In this document: piece by piece, positions 3,460-64,000 of the stretch
Position numbering within the stretch: the first letter of the stretch is position 1
Layout: each line of letters opens with the position of its first letter
Made by a program: the position numbers and the translations under genes
Notes under the pieces: generated by a model
Seen by the model: the letters and a program-made list of their open reading frames with translations, nothing else
Databases searched by the model: none
What the model was told of the DNA's origin: nothing
DNA from: Mytilus galloprovincialis
Lineage: Eukaryota > Mollusca > Bivalvia > Mytilida > Mytilidae
Direction: 5' to 3'
Length of the DNA: 64,000 nucleotides
Assembly (NCBI RefSeq): GCF_965363235.1
Contig: NC_134845.1
Coordinates: 60,541,261 to 60,605,260 of the forward strand

Positions 3460-3497
3460 TTGAGGTCACCGACATTTTTGGAGAGACCGTTAGTGGT

Positions 3498-3990
3498 GCT
3501 CAGTCTTATGTTTTTGCTCAGTCTGATGTTTTTGCTCAGTCTGCTCAGTCTTATGTTTATGCTCAGTCTGATGTTTTGCTCAGTCTTATGTTTTTGCTCA
3601 GTCTTATGTTTTTGCTCAGTCTTATGTTTATGCTCAGTCTTATGTTTATGCTCAGTCTTATGTTTTTGCTCAGTCTTATGTTTATGCTCAGTCTTATGTT
3701 TTTGCTCAGTCTGCTCAGTCTTATGTTTTTGCTCAGTCTTATGTTTATGTTCAGTCTTATGTTTTTGCTCAGTCTTATGTTTTTGCTCAGTCTTATGTTT
3801 ATGCTCAGTCTTATGTTTTTGCTCAGTCTTATGTTTATGCTCAGTCTTATGTTTTTGCTCACTCTTATGTTTATGCTCAGTCTTATGTTTATGCTCAGTC
3901 TGCTCAGTCTTATGTTTATGCTCAGTCTGCTCAGTCTTATGTTTTTGCTCAGTCTGCTCAGTCTTATGTTTTTGCTCAGTCTTATGTTTT
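3498..3990. repeat. Minisatellite, 18-bp unit with 9-bp half units
   Basis: About 27 tandem units of ATGTTTTTGCTCAGTCTT fill this interval. Two unit variants alternate irregularly (tttttgctc and tttatgctc), and an extra 9-bp GCTCAGTCT is inserted at several points, so the array is built on a 9-bp period. Because 18 is divisible by 3, long open frames appear on both strands. They encode only repeated Leu/Ser/Phe/Met or Asn/Ile/Arg/Leu and are not genes. The array ends directly against an R1-type repeat tail at about 3991. Confidence 0.95.
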
Positions 3991-4882: not shown

Positions 4883-5217
4883 CCCAAAGCATGTTTATTA
4901 AGACAGCTAACGCTCGAACCACGCTTATTAAGACAGCTAACACTCGAAGCACATGTATCAAGACAGCTAACACTCGAAGCACATGTATCAAGACAGCTAA
5001 CACTTGAAGCACATTTATCAAGACAGCAAACGTTCGTAGCACATTTATCAACACATCTAAGACTCGCACATTTATCAAGACAGCTAACGCTCGAAGCACA
5101 TTTATCAAGACAGCTAACGCCCGAATCACATTTATAAAAACAGCTAACGCTTGAGGCACATATATCACGACAGCTAACGCTCGAAGCACATTTATCAAGA
5201 CAACTAATGTTCGTACT
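4883..5217. repeat. Minisatellite, 30-bp unit
   Basis: Eleven or so diverged copies of a 30-bp unit run in tandem (core acatttatcaagacagctaa followed by cgctcgaagc). One unit near 5050-5070 is shortened. The 117-codon minus-strand frame across it, rich in Val/Leu/Ala/Ile, is a by-product of the period being divisible by 3 and should not be read as a membrane protein. Confidence 0.92.
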
Positions 5218-13881: not shown

Positions 13882-14322
13882 ATTGTCAAAATGGTGTTTA
13901 GATCCTAAACACTAATCTAAGCACATCTTTCTGCACTGTTTTTTTTTACATGCTTAGGTCTAAACGTGTGTCGGTACAATGTGTTTAGTATTGTGTTTAG
14001 ATTAGAAAAATGTGTTTAATTTCTAAACACTTTCATTTTAAAACGTGTTTACATTCAAGCCATGTTTAAATAGTATGTGCTTACTGAGAAATGTGTTTAG
14101 AAATTAAACATAATCCTAAGCACGATCTAAAAATGAACTCATAGATATCAGGACTAAATTTTGTATACACGCCAGACGCGTGTTTCGTCTACAAAAGACT
14201 CATCAGTGACGCTCGAATCCAAAAAAGTTAAAAAGGCCAAATAAAGTACGAAGTTGAAGAGCATAAACATGTGTAACACAAGTATTAAATTTCTAAGCAC
14301 GATTGTTACAGTGCATATATAT
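13881..14322. mobile_element. Second copy of the same element, interrupted
   Basis: This segment repeats the order of the element at 13665-13881 (aggtctaaacgtgtgtcggt, tacaatgtgtttagtattgt, and a final acagtgca near 14313-14320). The matching distal part resumes at about 14266 with aacatgtgtaacacaagta. A different repeat occupies about 14148-14265 in between. Confidence 0.55.
14148..14265. repeat. Dispersed repeat inserted in the TIR element
   Basis: The block contains gccagacgcgtgtttcgtct, acaaaagactcatcagtgac and gccaaataaagtacgaagtt, a phrase set I know as a dispersed bivalve repeat. It separates the two parts of the 13881-14322 element. Confidence 0.5.
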
Positions 14323-23962: not shown

Positions 23963-23964
23963 AC

Positions 23965-24033
<69 letters not shown>

Positions 24034-24034
24034 G

Positions 24035-24098
<64 letters not shown>

Positions 24099-24107
24099 TT
24101 CTGTCTT

Positions 24108-24154
<47 letters not shown>

Positions 24155-24173
24155 TTCTGTCTGTCTGTCTGTC
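23963..24173. repeat. TGTC tetranucleotide microsatellite, ~210 bp
   Basis: An almost pure (CTGT)n tract runs here. Occasional CTTT units and one single-base phase slip near 24034 break it. On the minus strand it reads as an open Thr-Asp-Arg-Gln repeat, which is not evidence of a gene. Confidence 0.97.
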
Positions 24174-28542: not shown

Positions 28543-28687
28543 CAGTGGCGGATCCAGGGGGGTCCGGGATTGGAATCCCCCTTTTTATGGACGATCATGC
28601 ATTTGAATGGGAGCATATAGGTGGAACCCCCCTCCCTTTACTCTGGGTTGGGAAGCCCCCTATTTAAAATGGCTGGATCTGCCCCTG
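28543..28687 (+). mobile_element. ggcggatcc-type element, copy 1
   Basis: It begins cagtggcggatccagggg and ends ggctggatctgcccctgcca, with inverted-repeat-like ends about 145 bp apart. A second copy lies inverted 75 bp away. There is no coding capacity. Confidence 0.65.
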
Positions 28688-28760
28688 CCATGTTTGCTGT
28701 CATTTGATGCTTATTGTTCACGACCAATTTGATTAATTATTCATAATAATACATATATAT

Positions 28761-28904
28761 CAGGGGCGGATCCAGCCATTTTAAAAAGGGGGTTCCCAAC
28801 CCAGAGTAAAGGAGGGGGTTCCAATTATATGCTCCCATTCAAATGCATTAATCGTCCAAAAAAGGGGGTCCAACATCGGGGACCCCCCCCCCTGGATCCG
28901 CCAA
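28761..28904 (-). mobile_element. ggcggatcc-type element, copy 2, inverted
   Basis: The plus strand reads aggggcggatccagccattt through caacccagagtaaaggaggg to ctggatccgcca, the reverse complement of the preceding copy. Together the two could fold into a long hairpin with a loop of about 75 bases. Confidence 0.65.
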
Positions 28905-32639: not shown

Positions 32640-33718
32640 ATGTCTCGCCTTCTATACTAATCATTGATATTATGTTGATAGTCCTAAGTAAAAAGCTAAG
32701 CTTTATAACAACTGTACCATAAACTTAACATTAACCAAGATAACTAAACAAAGACCAATGAACCTTGAAAATGAGGTCAAGGTCAGATGAACCATGCCAG
32801 GCAGACATGTACAGCTAACAATGCTTCTATACAACATATATAGTTGACCTATTACTTATAGTTTAAGAAAAATAGACCAAAACACAAAAACTTAACACTG
32901 TGCAATGAACCATGAAAATGAGGTCACGGTCAAATAAAAGCTGCGCGACTGACATAAAGATCATTAAATATTTCCATACACCAAATATAGTTGACCTATG
33001 GCATATAGTATTAGATAAAAAGACCAAAACTCAAAAACTTAACTTTGACCACTGAACCATGAAAATGAGGTCAAGGTCACATGACATCTGCCCGTTAGAC
33101 ATGTACACCTTACAATCATTCCATACAACAAATATAGTAGACCTCTTGCATATAGTATGAGAACAACAGACCAAAAACACAAAAACTTAACTATAACCAC
33201 TGAACCATGAAAATGAGGTCAAGGTCAGATGACACCTGCCAGTTGGACATGTACACCTTACAGTCCTTCCATACACCGAATATACTAGCCCTATTGCTTA
33301 TAGTATCTGAGATATGGACTTGACCACCAAAACTTAACCTTGTTCACTGATCCATGAAATGAGGTCGAGGTCAAGTGAAAACTGTCTGACAGACATTAGG
33401 ACCTTGCAAGGTACGCACATATCAAATATAGTTATCCTATTACTTATAATAAGAGAGAATTCAACATTACAAAAAATTTGAACTTTTTTTTCAAGTGGTC
33501 ACTGAACCATGAAAATGAGGTCAAGGACATTGGACATGTGACTGACGGAAACTTCGTAACATGAGGCATCTATATACAAAGTATGAAGCATCCAGGTCTT
33601 CCACCTTGTAAAATATAAAGCTTTTAAGAAGTTAGCTAACGCCGCCGCCGTAGCCGTCGCCGGATCACTATCCCTATGTCGAGCTTTCTGCAACAAAAGT
33701 TGCAGGCTCGACAAAAAT
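32640..33718 (+). mobile_element. Element with ~147-bp internal tandem repeats
   Basis: The element starts tgtctcgccttctatacta and ends ccgccgccgtagccgtcgcc, then gttgcaggctcgacaaaaat. Its body is six diverged tandem units. Each contains tgaaccatgaaaatgaggtc; these begin at about 32759, 32906, 33053, 33201, 33348 and 33503, spaced 147, 147, 148, 147 and 155 bases. It shares both termini with the shorter element at 31233-31687, so the two are one family with different internal satellite cores. No protein is encoded. Confidence 0.75.
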
Positions 33719-57569: not shown

Positions 57570-59145
57570 GCATTACTAGTTTTTTATTTGCTTTTATTTA
57601 CAATATTTACAAAAACATTAAAAATTGTGAGTTCATGATTGCTTCTACTACACCTGACATATCTAATAATGTGTTTTTCTTATGGGAAAAGCATTCAAAC
57701 ATTTTAAATATTAAAAATCTTAGAAAGAAGTGAAAATACAAAATAATGTGTATACATGGTATATCATATTTCCAAAAGAAAATTAATGATACTTGTAGCC
57801 TCCCTTTGTCTTTGTTTTTGTTTCAGCAGTAATTCGTACACCAAATAACACAGGGACCGATTTTTTTGTTTTGTTTATTAATTTATCGACTTGTTGACAT
57901 TAAATCTATTGAATTAAAATATTGTTGATTTAATTATCTCAATCTGATTATAAAGGCGGAAAGATATCCTTAGATTTAAATATTTTATTTTTATTTACCT
58001 TTGCACTGTTGGGGATGTCTCAGTTGGGGGTCTGTTTACCTGTAATTTTCAGCTGAAAGAAGGTTTTAATTATTCCGCTATTGTTGAATATTGACAGAAG
58101 AAAGAATAAAATTTGGAATAATTATCAAAATTTAAAATATTTTTCAGAACATATGATTGACAAGTTTGAAATGTACGTGTGAAAAGTATTTCTTGATTGG
58201 AAACAGGTAAGGTCTGACTGTCTGATTTTATTTAATTTAATTTTTGAATAAAGAAGTTTATAAATGAATTTCATAGAGACGTAATGGTTGATGTACCTAG
58301 GTCTGTTAAAAAGTACATCTAAATATTTGGTTGATGTACCAATTATCAAGTTATTTGCCTATATATACTGTAACTTTTAAGTTGCAAATCATGCTATGAA
58401 GCTTTTTGTGGAGTGACGTGTATCAAACATGTTCAAAACCCTTCATATTTTGTTGAACAGTTGTCATTTTAACATGTTAAATGTATCAATATGCACAATA
58501 ACCTGAATTCTAAGGCCTAAAATAAAATATTGTTTGTTTCCCCAATCCCGACCGACCCCGCAAAAATGGTGCTACTCATAAAATTTTATTGTCAAAACCA
58601 AGTCGAGTGTTATTTTAATTCATTTTGGATTTTCAGGCTTCTCCAATAATGTTCAAGCTTTTTGGAAAAATAAAATCATTTCCCTACCTACCTAGCCACA
58701 CCTGGCTTGGTAGGGTCGGGATTGGGGAAACAAACAATATATTAATTTAGGCCTAAACAAATGTATTTTTCACAAACTAGGTTTCGAAAAAATGCAGAAT
58801 TAACCATGTTAACTACTTGGTTGTAATGTTTTGTCTTAAGATGAGGAAATCACATACTGTGTGTTTATAGTTTCGTCCTGCAGTTGTTTTGCATTAGTAT
58901 TTCTCCAAATGAAAACACACTTATTTGGTTATGTAGTTTTATCTTTTGACTTTCATAAGCAAGTCAAAGACAGGCGAAATAATGGTATAACAACGTCTGT
59001 CTGTTCATCTATAGATACTTCCTAAGATAACTCAAATTCTCTTTCACTAATTCTCGTATATCTTTAACAAAATGTTAAAACGGTCGAAAGCTCTTTTTTT
59101 TCAATTTTCGGATATTTTAATTTTGTCATTCCAGCGTTTCAGAAC
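57570..59145. other. AT-rich DNA, nothing recognised
   Basis: No gene is recognised. A loosely inverted pair (gtttgtttccccaatcccga near 58532 and gggattggggaaacaaaca near 58718) suggests a small decayed TIR element of about 230 bp spanning roughly 58510-58755. Confidence 0.4.
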
Positions 59146-59666
59146 TTATAAAATAAAATTGAGAAAGGAAATGGTGAATATGTCAAAGCGACAACCACCC
59201 GACCATAGAGCAAACAACAGCCGAAGGCAACCAATGGGTCTTCAATGTAGCGAGAATTCCCGCACCCGTAGGTGTCCTTCAGCTGGCCCCTAAAATATGC
59301 ATAATAGTACAGTGATAATGGACGTCATACTAAACTCCGAATTATACACAAGAAACTAAAATTTAAAATCATACAAGACTAACAAAGGCCAGAGGCTCCT
59401 GACTTGGGACAGGCGCAAAATTGCGGCGGGGTTAAACATGTTTATGAGATCTCAACCCTCCCCCTATACCTCTAGCCAATGTAGAAAAGTAAAAGAATAA
59501 CAATACGCACATTAAAATTCAGTTCAAAAGAAGTCCGAGTCTGATGTCAAAAGATGTAACAAAAGAAAATAAATAAAATGACAATAATACATAAATAACA
59601 ACAGACTACTAGCAGTTAACTGACATGCCAGCTCCAGACCTCAATTAAACTGATTGAAAGATTATG

Positions 59667-59744
59667 TCTTCATCATATGAATATCAGGTACAATCCCTCC
59701 CGTTAGGGGTTTAGTATCATACTATCATAAAATATATGAGAAGA
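59667..59744 (-). promoter_or_regulatory. SECIS-like element (selenocysteine insertion)
   Basis: On the minus strand, starting 50 bases after the TAA stop: lower helix UCUUC+UCAUAU (59744-59734) pairs with AUAUGA+GAAGA (59678-59667), with one bulged base. An internal loop follows. Then UGAU (59727-59724) faces UGAU (59686-59683), the non-Watson-Crick quartet. Helix II is GUAUGAUACU (59722-59713) with GGGAUUGUAC (59697-59688), nine pairs including G-U and one A/G mismatch. AAA lies unpaired at 59712-59710. A CCC/GGG ministem (59709-59707 with 59701-59699) closes the top. AUGA to AA spans 12 bases, as in eukaryotic SECIS. The ministem makes it form 2. Found by hand pairing, not by software. Confidence 0.75.
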
Positions 59745-59793
59745 ACATAACCCGTGTCATGCCAACAACTGTTTTTTTTAGAAGTAAATGTGT

Positions 59794-62700
59794 TTAGTTC
59801 CGATGCAAAGACCCTATCAGTGAATCAATGTTAAAGCCAAAATATGCAATCTTTAATGACCTGACAACAGTATCGTAACTATATCCCCTTTTAATAAGTC
59901 TATTTAAAGGTTTTGTTAGTTTCTGAGGAGAATACTGACATTTTTGTGCTTTATAAAGAATATTTCCATAAAATTTTGGATGTGAAATACCTGAACGTAT
60001 AAGATGTCTGCATGTTGAGTTATATTTACGAATTATTTCCTTATACCGGTGATAAAATTTAGTAAATGTTTTGACCAGTTTGTGATATCGAAAACCCTGG
60101 TGTAATAATTTTTCAGTAATACATAAATTTCTCTCGCTAAAATCTAATACATTGTTACATACACGAGCGAATCGTACAAGTTGAGATATATAAACACCAT
60201 AAGATGGTGACAAGGGAACGTCACCATCTAAAAATGGATAATTAACAATAGGAAATGAAAAATCATCTCTTTTATCATAAATTTTTGTATTAAGCTTCCC
60301 GTTTATGATATAGATATCAAGATCGAGGAAAGGGCAGTGGTCATTGTTATCATTAGCTTTATTTAAAGTAAGTTCTACAGGATAAATTTCTTTAGTATAC
60401 ATACTGAAGTCGTCATTATTTAGAGCCAATATATCATCCAAATATCTAAAAGTATTGTTAAATTTTTGTATCAAATGTTGTTTTGATGGGTCTTTGCTAA
60501 TTTTAGTCATAAATTGTAACTCATAACAATACAAAAACAGGTCCGCAATAAGTGGTGCACAGTTAGTCCCCATTGGAATTCCAATAACTTGACGATATAC
60601 GGAATCTCCAAAGCGAACAAAAATGTTATCAAGTAAAAATTCAAGTGCATAAATAGTATCAAAGCATGTCCAATTGACATAGTTCTTTTGTTTATTGCTA
60701 CTAAAAAATGATCTAAAAGAGTTTGAACATATGTACTCGCATTCCGACTTTTTAAATGCCCAGTTAATTAGGGATGTGAATTTTTTCTTAATAAGAATAT
60801 GAGGCAAAGTGGTATATAGGGTAGAAAAATCAAAACTTTGAACAGATTCAAAATCACCAATATATGCATGCAATTTATCAAGTACTTCCAACGAGTTTTT
60901 GACACTCCAAAAGTAATTAATTCCACTATTTTCAAAGGCCTTATTTGAACAATTTATTATCAGGTTTTTTATTGTACCAAGTGTACTAGTAAGTAAAACA
61001 GACAATTTAGTAGTTGAACAATGGCTGGAAGATGAAATAAATCTATATTTGTAAGGTTTTTTGTGCAGCTTCGGAAGCCAGTACATAGTTGGGACTTTCA
61101 TTGTGTTTGGTTCTGCTTGTAAAGAAGTAGCTAAAAGTTTATGTTTGTTACAGATGTCGTTTTCTGAAAATGAAGTCAGTTGGAATGTTGGTGAATTCGT
61201 GATTTCCTTTTGCAGAACCTCTATATAAAATTTACGTCAAACAATAATGATATTATTAGCAGCTTTATCAGCCGGGACAAAAACAAATTCCTTGGCTAGT
61301 TCTGTTAGTTTATTTTTGATACGCGAAATAGGGTTTTTATAGTTTTTGTTGAGGGTAAAATGTTCTTTAAAATGTTGTATTCGAATATCAACTATCTTCA
61401 TTACTGAATTAATAAAAGAGTCCAAAGATTTTTTGTCAGCTTTTTCCCGTTTTACCCATTTCAAACAGTAGGCGCGGAGTGAGTCGTTGATGATATTACG
61501 ACACTCATTCCAGTTAATAGTTGACGGGGGACGATATTTAGGTCCTTTACTGAGGAATGATTTTAACTCTCGGTCGCGAACGATGTTAAGGTCTCCTGTT
61601 ATAACATGGGAAATTGGTCCATAGGTGTATTCTGAATTACTGCAATTACACGACATAGGTGTATTTTCAGTGATATTTACATCTTTACACAATTGGCTAT
61701 AATTAAACACATATTTTCGGGTAGATTTCTTGTAAATATAACAAATGAGAGGGAGTTCAGTATTATCAAAATATCCAGGAATTTGGTCTTTAACAGAATG
61801 GTCGTTAAAAATACCGGCAATATTTACAAAATCAAAACCTTTATTGACATACTTTATTTTAATAAAATGTTTTTTATGATCTTCAGGTCGATCAATTTTT
61901 GGAAACAGTTTAGAATAACAATATGCCATTATAATTTGGACAATTTCATACTTAGGACTGTAATATGAAATTGTGTTGCAATCCTCTAAAATTTTATTTA
62001 ATTTATTTATAGGTAAAGAACAAAGCTTGGTTAACAGATAATGTCTGCCGTTGTTTTTTGAAATGGAAATTAGGTCCGAAATATTTGTATGGTTGGTCCG
62101 AAATTTTCTTTGATTGCGATTTTTTCTGCGTCCATGAGAACGATTTTTACGAACAGTTTTAGAAACTATATCCAAAATGTTAACAGAATCGGTTCTTGAT
62201 ATATTGCCAATTCCCATGATATTATCATTAAGACCGAGAGGGTAGACTGTCTGTAATTTTTTAATCCAATTTAATTCATTTATTTTTCGTGATCGTACAA
62301 ACTTGGAATGAGATTCACCAGGCTGCTTATTTACTACTTCTAAAGGTTGAACTGTTAAATATTTAATAGGATGACTGTGCTTCTTAAGATGTTGATAAAT
62401 GATACTTTTGAATTTATTGGGTCTTTTAAAACGATACAGGTGTTCTTGCGTGCGTTTAGATAAATATCGCCCAGTTTCACCTACGTACTGAATACCGCAT
62501 CCCGGTATGTTTCATGTGAGTAAATAAATAATACTGTTTGTTTTTCAAGTAATATCAGTTTCAAAATTTAGAGAAAATGTGCGACCATTAAATGTGGACC
62601 TTACTGTATTGTTGGTGGAAAGACGGGGACACGTAAGTCATTTTTTGGCATGACACTTATCGATAGAAGGGTAACCACGATTTTTATTGTTAAAAACGTT

Positions 62701-62856
62701 AGCTATCGTAGTATTTTTAGATAAGCGATTCTGAAGATTGAGACGTGTAGATACCCTTTGAACGAGTTTAGTATTTAATATTTTTCCATTTCTAAGCTTC
62801 ATATTTGTTTTTTGGTATGTAGATTTATAAACTGTAATTAGATTTATAAAAGACAA
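59794..62856 (-). CDS. GIY-YIG endonuclease-RT polyprotein with four UGA (Sec)
   Basis: One frame of 1020 codons, read with UGA as an amino acid. Order: a basic start (a second ATG at 62802, MKLRNGK, is an alternative start); Cys/His cluster with C68, U73, C76; U104; GIY-YIG endonuclease (IIY 109-111, YVG 124-126, Arg135, Glu194); CxC motif at 403-405 (CNC) followed by HVITGDLNIV; the RT entry segment FVPADKAANNIIIV just before U540; then RT motifs, with a KLHKKP segment near 595, motif A FDFSTLYT (Asp676), motif B GIPMGTNCAP (759-768) and motif C YLDD (Asp807, Asp808). N-terminal endonuclease plus CxC plus RT defines Naiad-type Penelope-like elements. The product would nick DNA and copy its RNA at the target. 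The four TGA codons replace residues that are Cys in the relatives I know. Confidence 0.85.
61237..61239 (-). other. In-frame TGA at residue 540 (putative Sec)
   Basis: The TGA follows N-N-I-I-I-V and precedes R-K-F-Y in the RT fingers entry. Related elements have Cys at this place, as I recall them. The frame continues without another stop to 59794. Confidence 0.7.
62512..62514 (-). other. In-frame TGA at residue 115 (putative Sec)
   Basis: The TGA lies between I-I-Y-L-L-T and N-I-P-G-C, four residues before Cys120. It occupies the first Cys of the pair that interrupts the GIY and YIG halves of the endonuclease in Penelope-like proteins. Confidence 0.75.
62545..62547 (-). other. In-frame TGA at residue 104 (putative Sec)
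   Basis: The context is T-D-I-T-(TGA)-K-T-N-S-I-I-Y. Relatives read a threonine-Cys-Lys pattern just before the GIY strand. Confidence 0.75.
62638..62640 (-). other. In-frame TGA at residue 73 (putative Sec)
   Basis: The context is K-C-H-A-K-K-(TGA)-L-T-C-P. Relatives read a Cys two residues before the second Cys of this cluster (C-L-T-C-P). Confidence 0.75.
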
Positions 62857-62899
62857 TTTTCACAAATTGTGGGCTATCTTTAGTATTCCTTAATTCACT

Positions 62900-63245
62900 G
62901 ATTTTTACCAATTATCGCACACTAACTCCAGTTTTCCTCTATTGATATCCCCTAAACTTTGCATTATTGTAATAATTGCTGAATATAAGTTTATGTTTTA
63001 TTTTTTATTATCCGATTTGTCATGCGAGAGTTACAAGACTCTAATTTTAGTAAAAATTTACATAATTGCTGCAATTATGAGTGAACATAACAAACTGGTC
63101 AAGTTTAAAAAAGTATTTTCAGGCATATTAAAACAGATCGATTTTATTTGCATATAATTGAAGGACTTTGAAATATATCCCATTTTAATCTTGCAACAAT
63201 TTCAATATGCACTTTAAGGGCTTATCATGAGATTTTGTCCCAGCT
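62900..63245. other. Possible 5' flank of the Naiad, unassigned
   Basis: AT-rich DNA upstream of the retroelement start. The element 5' boundary must lie in or near here but I cannot place it. No gene is recognised. Confidence 0.4.
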
Positions 63246-63254
63246 GTTTTATTG

Positions 63255-63420
63255 TTCTCATCCTGATGTAAACACACATATTTTGATCACAGTTTTGAAT
63301 TCATTCCTTTTTGTTTTTTTCAGGATGTAAACAAACATATATACTTGTCACAGTTTTGTATTTAGTTGTTTTTGTTTTAAAACGATGTTAACAAATTATA
63401 TATTTGGTCATAATGATAAT
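63255..63420. repeat. Three-copy tandem repeat, ~61 bp
   Basis: The phrase gatgtaaacacacatatttt then gatcacagttttg at about 63262 recurs at 63323 and, more diverged, at 63384. Confidence 0.6.
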
Positions 63421-63514
63421 TCTATCCTCAGTTGTTTTTATACAACTGCAAAAATTAAAAAAAATTGGTCGTACATTGTACATGTATATTGGTACAAGTC
63501 GTTGTCAGCGTCGT

Positions 63515-64000
63515 CCGAAGATGGGTGGTTTCCGGATAATAACTTAAGTATTAGTAAATAGAAATCAATAAAATTTCAACAGAAGGTTTATAACCACTAA
63601 AAAAAGGTTGGGATTGATTTTGGGGATTTTGGTCCCAATAGTTTAGGAACAAGGGGCCCAAAAGGGGTCAAAATAAGTATTTTTCTAGTTTCGAGACAAT
63701 AACTTGTGTGTAAGTGTATGGATCTTTCTGAAATTGTACCACAAGGTTCCATTTCAATAAAGAAAGGGTTGGGATTGATTTTGGGGGTTATAGCCCAAAC
63801 TGTTTAGGAATAAGGGGCCAAAAACAATACTTTTCTAATACTTTGTATAAATTGCTTATTTCTTGACCAATTTCAATGGGGTTTTATTCTTGAATTTTTG
63901 GGGTTCTCATTGATCTGGAAGGTTTTTTTTACTATGGGCCCAGGGCCCCTCAAAAATGAATTCAATGGGCCATTTTAAAAAATAATGGGCTATGTTGTCA
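63515..64000. repeat. Bivalve repeat with ~161-bp units, runs off the end
   Basis: The phrases ggttgggattgattttgggg and gtttaggaacaaggggccc occur at about 63607-63660 and again, with changes, at 63768-63820. The repeat begins near tggtttccggataataac and continues past the window. Confidence 0.6.

What the first reader, a model, noticed from the sequence alone, without database searches (positions are those of the whole stretch)
59794..62856. Mussel retroelement whose polyprotein appears to contain four selenocysteines
The three longest open frames at this locus (62856-62638, 62217-61237, 61101-59794) are all in the same minus-strand phase. The DNA between them is open too, except for TGA at 62640, 62547, 62514 and 61239. 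Over 1020 codons there is no TAA, no TAG and no frameshift before the final TAA. Each TGA falls where related Naiad-type proteins have Cys: three in the zinc/GIY-YIG part and one at the RT entry. Random decay would give mixed stops and indels at unrelated positions, and Cys to TGA needs a transversion. From the literature I recall that Naiad elements of spiders and clams independently became multi-Sec selenoproteins. Whether this mussel lineage has been described I cannot tell. Transposons that depend on the host selenium machinery are rare and would tie their activity to selenium supply.
Basis: partly seen in the sequence, partly recalled or inferred. Interest (0 to 1): 0.92.

Follow-up and report, generated by a model that had tools for sequence, protein, structure and literature searches.

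The report
Mussel retrotransposon with four selenocysteines
A very abundant jumping gene in what looks like a mussel genome seems to be translated straight through four UGA stop codons read as selenocysteine, so its ability to copy itself probably depends on the host's selenium machinery; related selenium-using elements were, as far as I recall, already known from clams and spiders.

Summary
Observation confirmed; interpretation supported. Minus strand 62802-59794 encodes one 1002-residue protein interrupted only by TGA at 62640, 62547, 62514 and 61239. All aligned relatives covering those columns have Cys there.

Added here: (1) a SECIS-type hairpin 55 nt after the stop, also in a diverged subfamily, though below Rfam's cut-off. 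(2) TGA in all near-identical copies read (39/39, 41/41, 41/41, 21/21) and at all four sites in 8 of 8 copies of a subfamily with dS about 0.27 and dN/dS about 0.12, low before, between and after the TGAs. (3) Of 1142 genome-wide matches around the fourth site, 10 read Cys. (4) Of 74 environmental relatives, 37 end exactly before the fourth site and 8 before the first Cys of CxC; 11 of 212 proteins have Trp, probably TGA read by code 4, at these Cys columns. Fourth-site Sec lies in one clade (100/98).

Architecture (N-terminal GIY-YIG, CxC, telomerase-like RT, tandem copies) fits Naiad Penelope-like elements. Sec-Naiads of clams and spiders are known (recalled; paper not held): new member of a known kind. 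Sec incorporation is untested.

The parts
59150..62828 (-). retrotransposon copy (5'-truncated at 62828; 3' end at 59150-59154)
   Evidence: 99.3-100% identical to the main match in each of the other fetched loci, common 3' end, different flanks; L034, L035 and L045 go on further 5', sharing 126-185 bp, and L034 has about 350 bp
59794..62802 (-). single coding frame, ATG to TAA, 1002 residues with four in-frame TGA
62638..62640 (-). TGA 1 (frame residue 73, U-x-x-C motif), proposed Sec
   Evidence: 12/12 covering relatives have Cys; TGA in 39/39 young copies
62545..62547 (-). TGA 2 (residue 104), proposed Sec
   Evidence: 17/17 Cys in covering relatives; TGA in 41/41 distinct young copies
62512..62514 (-). 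TGA 3 (residue 115), proposed Sec; probably first Cys of the endonuclease CCHH motif with C120, H139, H156
   Evidence: 17/17 Cys in covering relatives; TGA in 41/41 distinct young copies; invariant C120, H139, H156
61237..61239 (-). TGA 4 (residue 540), proposed Sec, at entry to the RT domain
   Evidence: 22/22 Cys in relatives; TGA 21/21; 37 of 74 environmental proteins end exactly before it
62212..62679 (-). N-terminal GIY-YIG endonuclease domain with preceding Cys/Sec cluster (residues 60-215)
   Evidence: AlphaFold2 pLDDT 87 with TGA read as Cys; Foldseek top hits I-TevI and UvrC GIY-YIG, best E 0.07; Pfam GIY-YIG in 6 of 7 relatives scanned, 3 of them above the curated cut-off
61642..61650 (-). 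CxC motif (C403, C405); Cys here, but in other relatives 8 proteins end just before 403 and 7 have Trp there
59797..61236 (-). telomerase-like reverse transcriptase (residues 541-1020; fold match begins about 374)
59674..59738 (-). SECIS-like hairpin, 55 nt 3' of the stop codon (AUGA ... AAA ... UGAU core)
   Evidence: Rfam SECIS_1, 30.9 bits, E 0.004 in 6 kb, below the gathering score of 35; 30.7-32.8 bits in 8 of 8 copies of subfamily B

Best explanation
This is a 5'-truncated copy of a young, very abundant Naiad-type Penelope-like retrotransposon whose single protein is a selenoprotein with four selenocysteines. The mRNA carries one SECIS hairpin just after the stop codon. By the standard eukaryotic pathway this recruits host SBP2, eEFSec and tRNA-Sec so that all four UGAs are read as Sec (inferred). 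The Sec residues replace Cys that are otherwise near-universal: three in the Cys cluster and zinc motif of the N-terminal GIY-YIG endonuclease and one at the entry to the telomerase-like RT. The protein then nicks DNA and copies its RNA by target-primed reverse transcription (inferred from domains, common 3' ends, 5' truncation and tandem copies). Mobility should therefore need host selenium (inferred).
Against: The SECIS scores stay below Rfam's gathering cut-off (30.7-32.8 against 35) and the free-energy z-score is only -2.25 (7 of 200 shuffles as good). Close relatives P0001, P0002 and P0095 (76-79% identical) have Cys at the fourth site, so Sec there is dispensable in some lineages. Ten copies read TGY at the fourth site. 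The environmental stops and Trp are read from proteins, not DNA, and Trp is also seen (2 or more proteins) at 19 other columns where the window has none. Host Sec machinery in this genome was not tested, and there is no protein or ribosome data.
Confidence: 0.93

Rival explanations
1. The TGAs are decay inherited from one defective master copy, amplified in trans by intact Cys-coded elements.
For: The young copies are 99.3-100% identical and share recent ancestry, so fixation among them alone proves little. Ten TGY copies exist at the fourth site. A search of this genome for an all-Cys Naiad family did not complete.
Against: A subfamily at dS about 0.27 has the same four TGAs in 8 of 8 copies with dN/dS about 0.12. 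Of the ten TGY copies, seven gave no match at the expected N-terminal place, one matched elsewhere, and the two covering N-terminal sites keep TGA at the sites covered. Relatives at 40-60% identity stop at the same Cys column.
Confidence: 0.03
2. UGA is read through, but as another residue (near-cognate read-through, Cys or Trp), not Sec.
For: The sequence cannot show the residue; the SECIS match is below the gathering score.
Against: UGA stands only at Cys columns and no TAA/TAG is used. A SECIS-like hairpin with the canonical core sits after the stop in both subfamilies and was not found in the all-Cys relative. Mytilus coruscus deiodinases with TGA and SECIS have been described (PMC8481496, passages seen).
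Confidence: 0.04
3. The frame makes several separate proteins by termination and re-initiation; the UGAs are real stops.
For: Two of the segments are long and open with an ATG.
Against: The stretch TGA1-TGA3 (41 codons, cut by TGA2) is as constrained as the rest (dN/dS at most 0.17), and it is conserved Cys positions that are TGA. It would split the endonuclease domain, which is modelled as one unit across these sites.
Confidence: 0.02

Closest known systems
Naiad Penelope-like elements that are selenoproteins, in spiders and clams (Craig et al. 2021, Mol Biol Evol 38:5005; content recalled, paper not held; reference seen)
   Same: N-terminal GIY-YIG, CxC, telomerase-like RT, several Sec, animal hosts including bivalves (all as recalled)
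   Different: This copy is in what looks like a mussel. Whether the published clam elements belong to the same clade, use the same sites or carry Sec in CxC could not be checked.
All-Cys Naiad-like relatives (P0004-P0022, L095)
   Same: Same domain order and Cys pattern, 25-35% identity
   Different: Sites are Cys wherever covered; no SECIS match in L095 (the others' DNA was not seen)
Canonical Penelope/Poseidon elements (PMC11167929, passages seen)
   Same: GIY-YIG plus telomerase-like RT in one ORF, tandem copies and pseudo-LTRs
   Different: There the endonuclease is C-terminal and a hammerhead ribozyme is present; here it is N-terminal and no hammerhead match was listed in the element
Mytilus selenoproteins such as deiodinases (PMC8481496, passages seen)
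   Same: In-frame TGA and SECIS in the 3'-UTR
   Different: Single-Sec host enzymes, not transposons

Membership tests
Naiad (N-terminal EN+ Penelope-like element) | N-terminal GIY-YIG endonuclease upstream of the RT (recalled as defining) | tested here: met
   Foldseek of residues 60-215: top hits I-TevI catalytic domain (prob 0.96, E 0.07) and UvrC; invariant YVG, R135, E194 and near-invariant N210; Pfam GIY-YIG in 6 of 7 relatives scanned, 3 above the curated cut-off. No direct Pfam GIY-YIG hit in the window protein.
Naiad (N-terminal EN+ Penelope-like element) | Telomerase-like RT | tested here: met
Naiad (N-terminal EN+ Penelope-like element) | CxC motif between EN and RT (recalled as defining) | tested here: met
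   C403 and C405: Cys in 20 of 20 and 21 of 21 rows with a residue in A1, window included
Naiad (N-terminal EN+ Penelope-like element) | CCHH motif of the EN (recalled as defining) | tested here: met
   Column 115 (TGA here, Cys in relatives) with invariant C120, H139, H156; that these four are the published motif is my inference, zinc binding not tested
Naiad (N-terminal EN+ Penelope-like element) | Tandem or partial-tandem copies, pseudo-LTR | tested here: met
   L034 has a 637-bp 3' piece followed, after about 350 bp of 5' region, by a longer copy; N-terminal hits 4031-4032 bp apart on C1 and C13
Naiad (N-terminal EN+ Penelope-like element) | No hammerhead ribozyme (recalled) | tested here: met
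   None listed in 58000-64000 at E up to 5 nor in L034/L035, which include part of the 5' region, at E up to 2
Naiad (N-terminal EN+ Penelope-like element) | Insertion bias for microsatellites (recalled) | tested here: inconclusive
   Flanks printed for 30 loci (window's own included) and read by eye; many AT-rich, few simple repeats; no statistic made
Naiad (N-terminal EN+ Penelope-like element) | Insertion-in-fingers domain in the RT (recalled) | not tested
   Not examined
Naiad (N-terminal EN+ Penelope-like element) | Groups with named Naiads in an RT tree | not testable with these tools
   No named Naiad sequences at hand
Eukaryotic selenoprotein | In-frame UGA at positions that are Cys in homologues | tested here: met
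   Four of four
[quoted passage not shown]
   RF00031 30.9 bits, E 0.004, 55 nt after the stop; 8/8 in subfamily B; every score below the gathering score of 35, so by Rfam's own cut-off not a called hit
Eukaryotic selenoprotein | Host Sec machinery | not tested
   Search for tRNA-Sec did not complete; Mytilus coruscus deiodinases with TGA and SECIS in PMC8481496 (passages)
Eukaryotic selenoprotein | Selenium in the protein | not testable with these tools
   Needs mass spectrometry or 75Se labelling

The most novel reading that the evidence does not exclude
Sec-coded Naiads form one old clade, spread over many hosts and represented in public data mostly as ORFs cut at the Sec sites. In it at least five conserved Cys have become Sec: the fourth-site Sec arose once and was sometimes lost, while Sec at the first Cys of CxC came and went (at least six changes on the tree). 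A transposon lineage has thus lived for a long time on its hosts' selenium supply, with Sec and Cys exchanging site by site.
Probability: 0.55. Interest if true: 0.72.

Novelty: new member of a known kind. Interest (0 to 1): 0.6.

Why it matters
A transposon that needs host selenocysteine machinery would tie its mobility to selenium supply and make that dependence testable. This family is young, and its fourth-site context is found in over a thousand places in one genome, so copy activity could be compared directly between selenium states. The environmental set suggests that ordinary gene calling cuts such proteins at the Sec sites, so they would be overlooked in annotations. Cys-Sec exchange at single sites is a natural experiment on why Sec is used where Cys works.

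Tried and rejected
Pfam on the read-through protein gave no significant family, only ATE_N at E 0.04 below its cut-off; relatives and folds had to carry the domain assignment. A profile search against PDB sequences gave four weak matches, best an acetyltransferase at E 0.025, one an RT maturase at E 0.15. Viral-contig scans found no relative and the phage collection no match. Genome contigs gave one all-Cys relative on a contig binned as Flavobacteriales, which I take for mis-binned animal DNA. The paper on Naiads is not held. Paper searches with Naiad/selenocysteine/Penelope-like, Penelope-like/selenocysteine (11), retrotransposon/selenocysteine/SECIS/bivalve (14), selenoproteins/Naiads (29), Penelope/selenocysteine/retroelement, two of three (70; 15 of 364 listed), Naiad/Penelope/retrotransposon (101) and selenoprotein/transposon/in-frame UGA/mollusc, three of four (102; 12 of 17 listed) showed no paper on Sec transposons among the titles and abstract openings listed; (Penelope-like elements/Naiad) gave one TE library paper that lists Naiad as a PLE group (passages). 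That is absence from this library's listings, not from print. A search for the host species' genome paper found nothing. A search for an all-Cys Naiad family in this genome (query P0004) and for host tRNA-Sec did not complete. Decay, alternative decoding and split products were considered as rivals.

Limits of counts: the genome search scored 97 of 57217 candidates, 40 of 751 and 74 of 55793, best first, so absence of other stops in the young set is partly selection. In one search, 65 rows were used (window's own copy left out), segments under 97% identity were dropped, and three copies (L021/L062, L022/L060, L023/L081) were counted twice at the second and third sites; one search recounts without them. 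5 of the 65 rows have an indel in the frame. In one search, 10 of 20 regions gave no match and one more covered no site. In one search, 7 of 10 gave no match and one matched elsewhere. In one search only the best 120 of 3235 proteins were listed and used. In one search rows with under 180 residues in residues 121-560 were left out, and one search dropped 11 long-branched or gappy rows. In one search, 74 of 145 rows were kept. Proteins cut at one site say nothing of the sites beyond, so their states count as unknown in the trees.

Full report
WHAT IS THERE. Read through, window 62856-59794 has TGA at 62640, 62547, 62514 and 61239 and no TAA or TAG until the TAA at 59796-59794. Random sequence of the same bases would hold about 60 TAA/TAG in such a frame, never fewer than 38 in 2000 shuffles.

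THE TGA SITES ARE CYS SITES. Of 26 proteins found by sequence search, 22 were aligned with the window. At residues 73, 104, 115 and 540 every relative with a residue there has Cys: 12/12, 17/17, 17/17 and 22/22. Residue 115 lines up as the first Cys of a C-C-H-H set (115, 120, 139, 156) inside the GIY-YIG domain; 73 begins a U-x-x-C; 540 sits where the RT fold begins.

SECIS. Scanning 58000-64000 against all Rfam families gives SECIS_1 as the best match, at 59738-59674 on the same strand, 55 nt after the stop (30.9 bits, E 0.004). It is the only SECIS match listed in the 64-kb window (E 0.042, list to E 2). It has the AUGA / AAA / UGAU core. It stays below Rfam's gathering score of 35, and its folding z-score is -2.25 (7 of 200 shuffles fold as well). 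The same hairpin is found in four further young-copy loci out of four searched (five matches) and in 8 of 8 copies of a second subfamily (30.7-32.8 bits), where a mismatched pair next to the core has become G-C. The all-Cys relative L095 has no match.

COPIES IN THE SAME GENOME. The window is part of a 1.385-Gb assembly with 14 chromosome-sized contigs. A Mytilus edulis gene model (P0089) contains a 55-residue piece 82% identical to this protein, so a Mytilus-like mussel is likely; the species was not identified. In the 29 other loci fetched the main match is 99.3-100% identical over its length; a few loci also hold older pieces at 78-96%. Copies end at the same 3' base within a few nucleotides, are cut at different 5' points and lie in different flanks: recent retrotransposition. 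Codons at the four sites are TGA in 39/39, 41/41, 41/41 and 21/21 distinct copies. No other stop appears in 25,404 codons compared, but this set was chosen for high identity; 5 of 65 rows have an indel. Outside the RT query, distinct variants number 32 synonymous to 22 non-synonymous (crude pN/pS 0.18).

A SECOND, OLDER SUBFAMILY gives the stronger test. Querying with P0001 brought 74 scored copies; 74 of 74 carry a TGA inside the matched part, which covers only the fourth site, and 63 of 74 have no further stop; the other 11 hold six TAG, four TAA and two extra TGA. In eight copies fetched nearly whole, all four TGAs are at the same places in 8 of 8; one has an extra TGA in a Leu codon, two have a one-base indel. 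These eight were picked for a long open frame. In 20 further copies read only around the N-terminal sites, TGA is found in 8/8, 8/8 and 9/9 of those covering each site. Against the window, dS is 0.27-0.29 and dN/dS 0.11-0.13; in the segments before TGA1, between TGA1 and TGA3, between TGA3 and TGA4, and after TGA4 it is 0.22 or less in every copy. Selection has thus acted on one protein read across the TGAs.

THE REFUTATION TEST. A genome-wide search for the fourth-site context with a Cys codon, one mismatch allowed, gave 1142 places (3 for the reversed control). Only 10 match a Cys codon exactly; six of these ten have the same letters. The 90 one-mismatch places listed, all on C1, are 88 TGA and 2 TGG; the remaining 1042 were not listed. 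At the 10 Cys-like places, the N-terminal region gave no match at the expected distance in 7; of the other three, one matched elsewhere and two keep TGA at the sites covered. I read them as point-mutated, mostly 5'-truncated copies, perhaps with a small sub-lineage, not a Cys-coded parent family.

RELATIVES ELSEWHERE. Searching with the piece between TGA3 and TGA4 found 74 environmental proteins. Of these, 37 end exactly at residue 539 and 8 exactly at 402, that is, just before the fourth site and just before the first Cys of the CxC motif. In 11 of 212 proteins gathered, Trp stands at one or more of the Cys columns 73, 104, 115, 403 and 540. There are none at the conserved Cys columns 68, 76, 120, 405, 613, 766 and 900, and one at 777; Trp in two or more proteins is also seen at 19 other columns, none of them a Cys column of the window. 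One of the 11, P0031, is 96% identical to the window and has Trp at 73, 104 and 115, as expected if the gene caller used code 4 and read TGA as Trp. So TGA is the likely codon at the cut sites too, though I could not see that DNA. On a tree of 76 rows the Sec540 proteins fall in one clade of 53 (support 100/98) with one known Cys540 and ten of unknown state inside; Sec540 needs two changes, Sec403 six (two and seven in the larger quick tree). An RT tree places Cys540 proteins P0001, P0002 and P0095 near the mussel family, so Sec and Cys exchange at this site. This counts against Sec being indispensable there.

KNOWN OR NEW. I recall that Craig et al. 2021 reported multi-Sec Naiads arising independently in spiders and clams; the paper is not held here and was seen only as a reference. 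This family is therefore a new member of a known kind. What may be new is the size and age of the Sec clade, Sec at the CxC motif and the site-by-site exchange, but I could not check these against that paper.

Noticed in passing
L095 (QIJL01000205.1, MAG Flavobacteriales SZUA-72), 1262-2515 and around: An all-Cys Naiad-like protein frame without in-frame stops on a contig binned as a bacterium; I take it for mis-binned animal DNA.
   Followed up: partly
P0089: A Mytilus edulis gene model called sulfotransferase 1A1-like includes about 55 residues 82% identical to this retrotransposon protein: perhaps an annotation that swallowed a transposon piece.
   Followed up: no
window 28644-28803 (-): Rfam MIR7526 match of 60.1 bits, E 2.3e-10, well under its gathering score of 110; perhaps a hairpin-forming repeat.
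   Followed up: no
window 14169-14212 (-): Hammerhead_1 match of 28.8 bits, E 0.0057, under the gathering score of 34.
   Followed up: no
window 3497-3990, 4887-5215, 23964-24173, 32742-33373: Tandem arrays: 18-bp, 30-bp, CTGT and 147-bp units; the 18-bp array is open on both strands and yields repetitive ORFs.
   Followed up: no
window 62506-62508 (-): The codon two after TGA3 is ATA in this copy but AAA in 41 of 41 other distinct copies covering it: a private change of this copy.
   Followed up: no
environmental proteins ending at residue 402 or 539: Public gene calls of this clade are often cut at the proposed Sec sites (45 of 74) or carry Trp there.
   Followed up: partly
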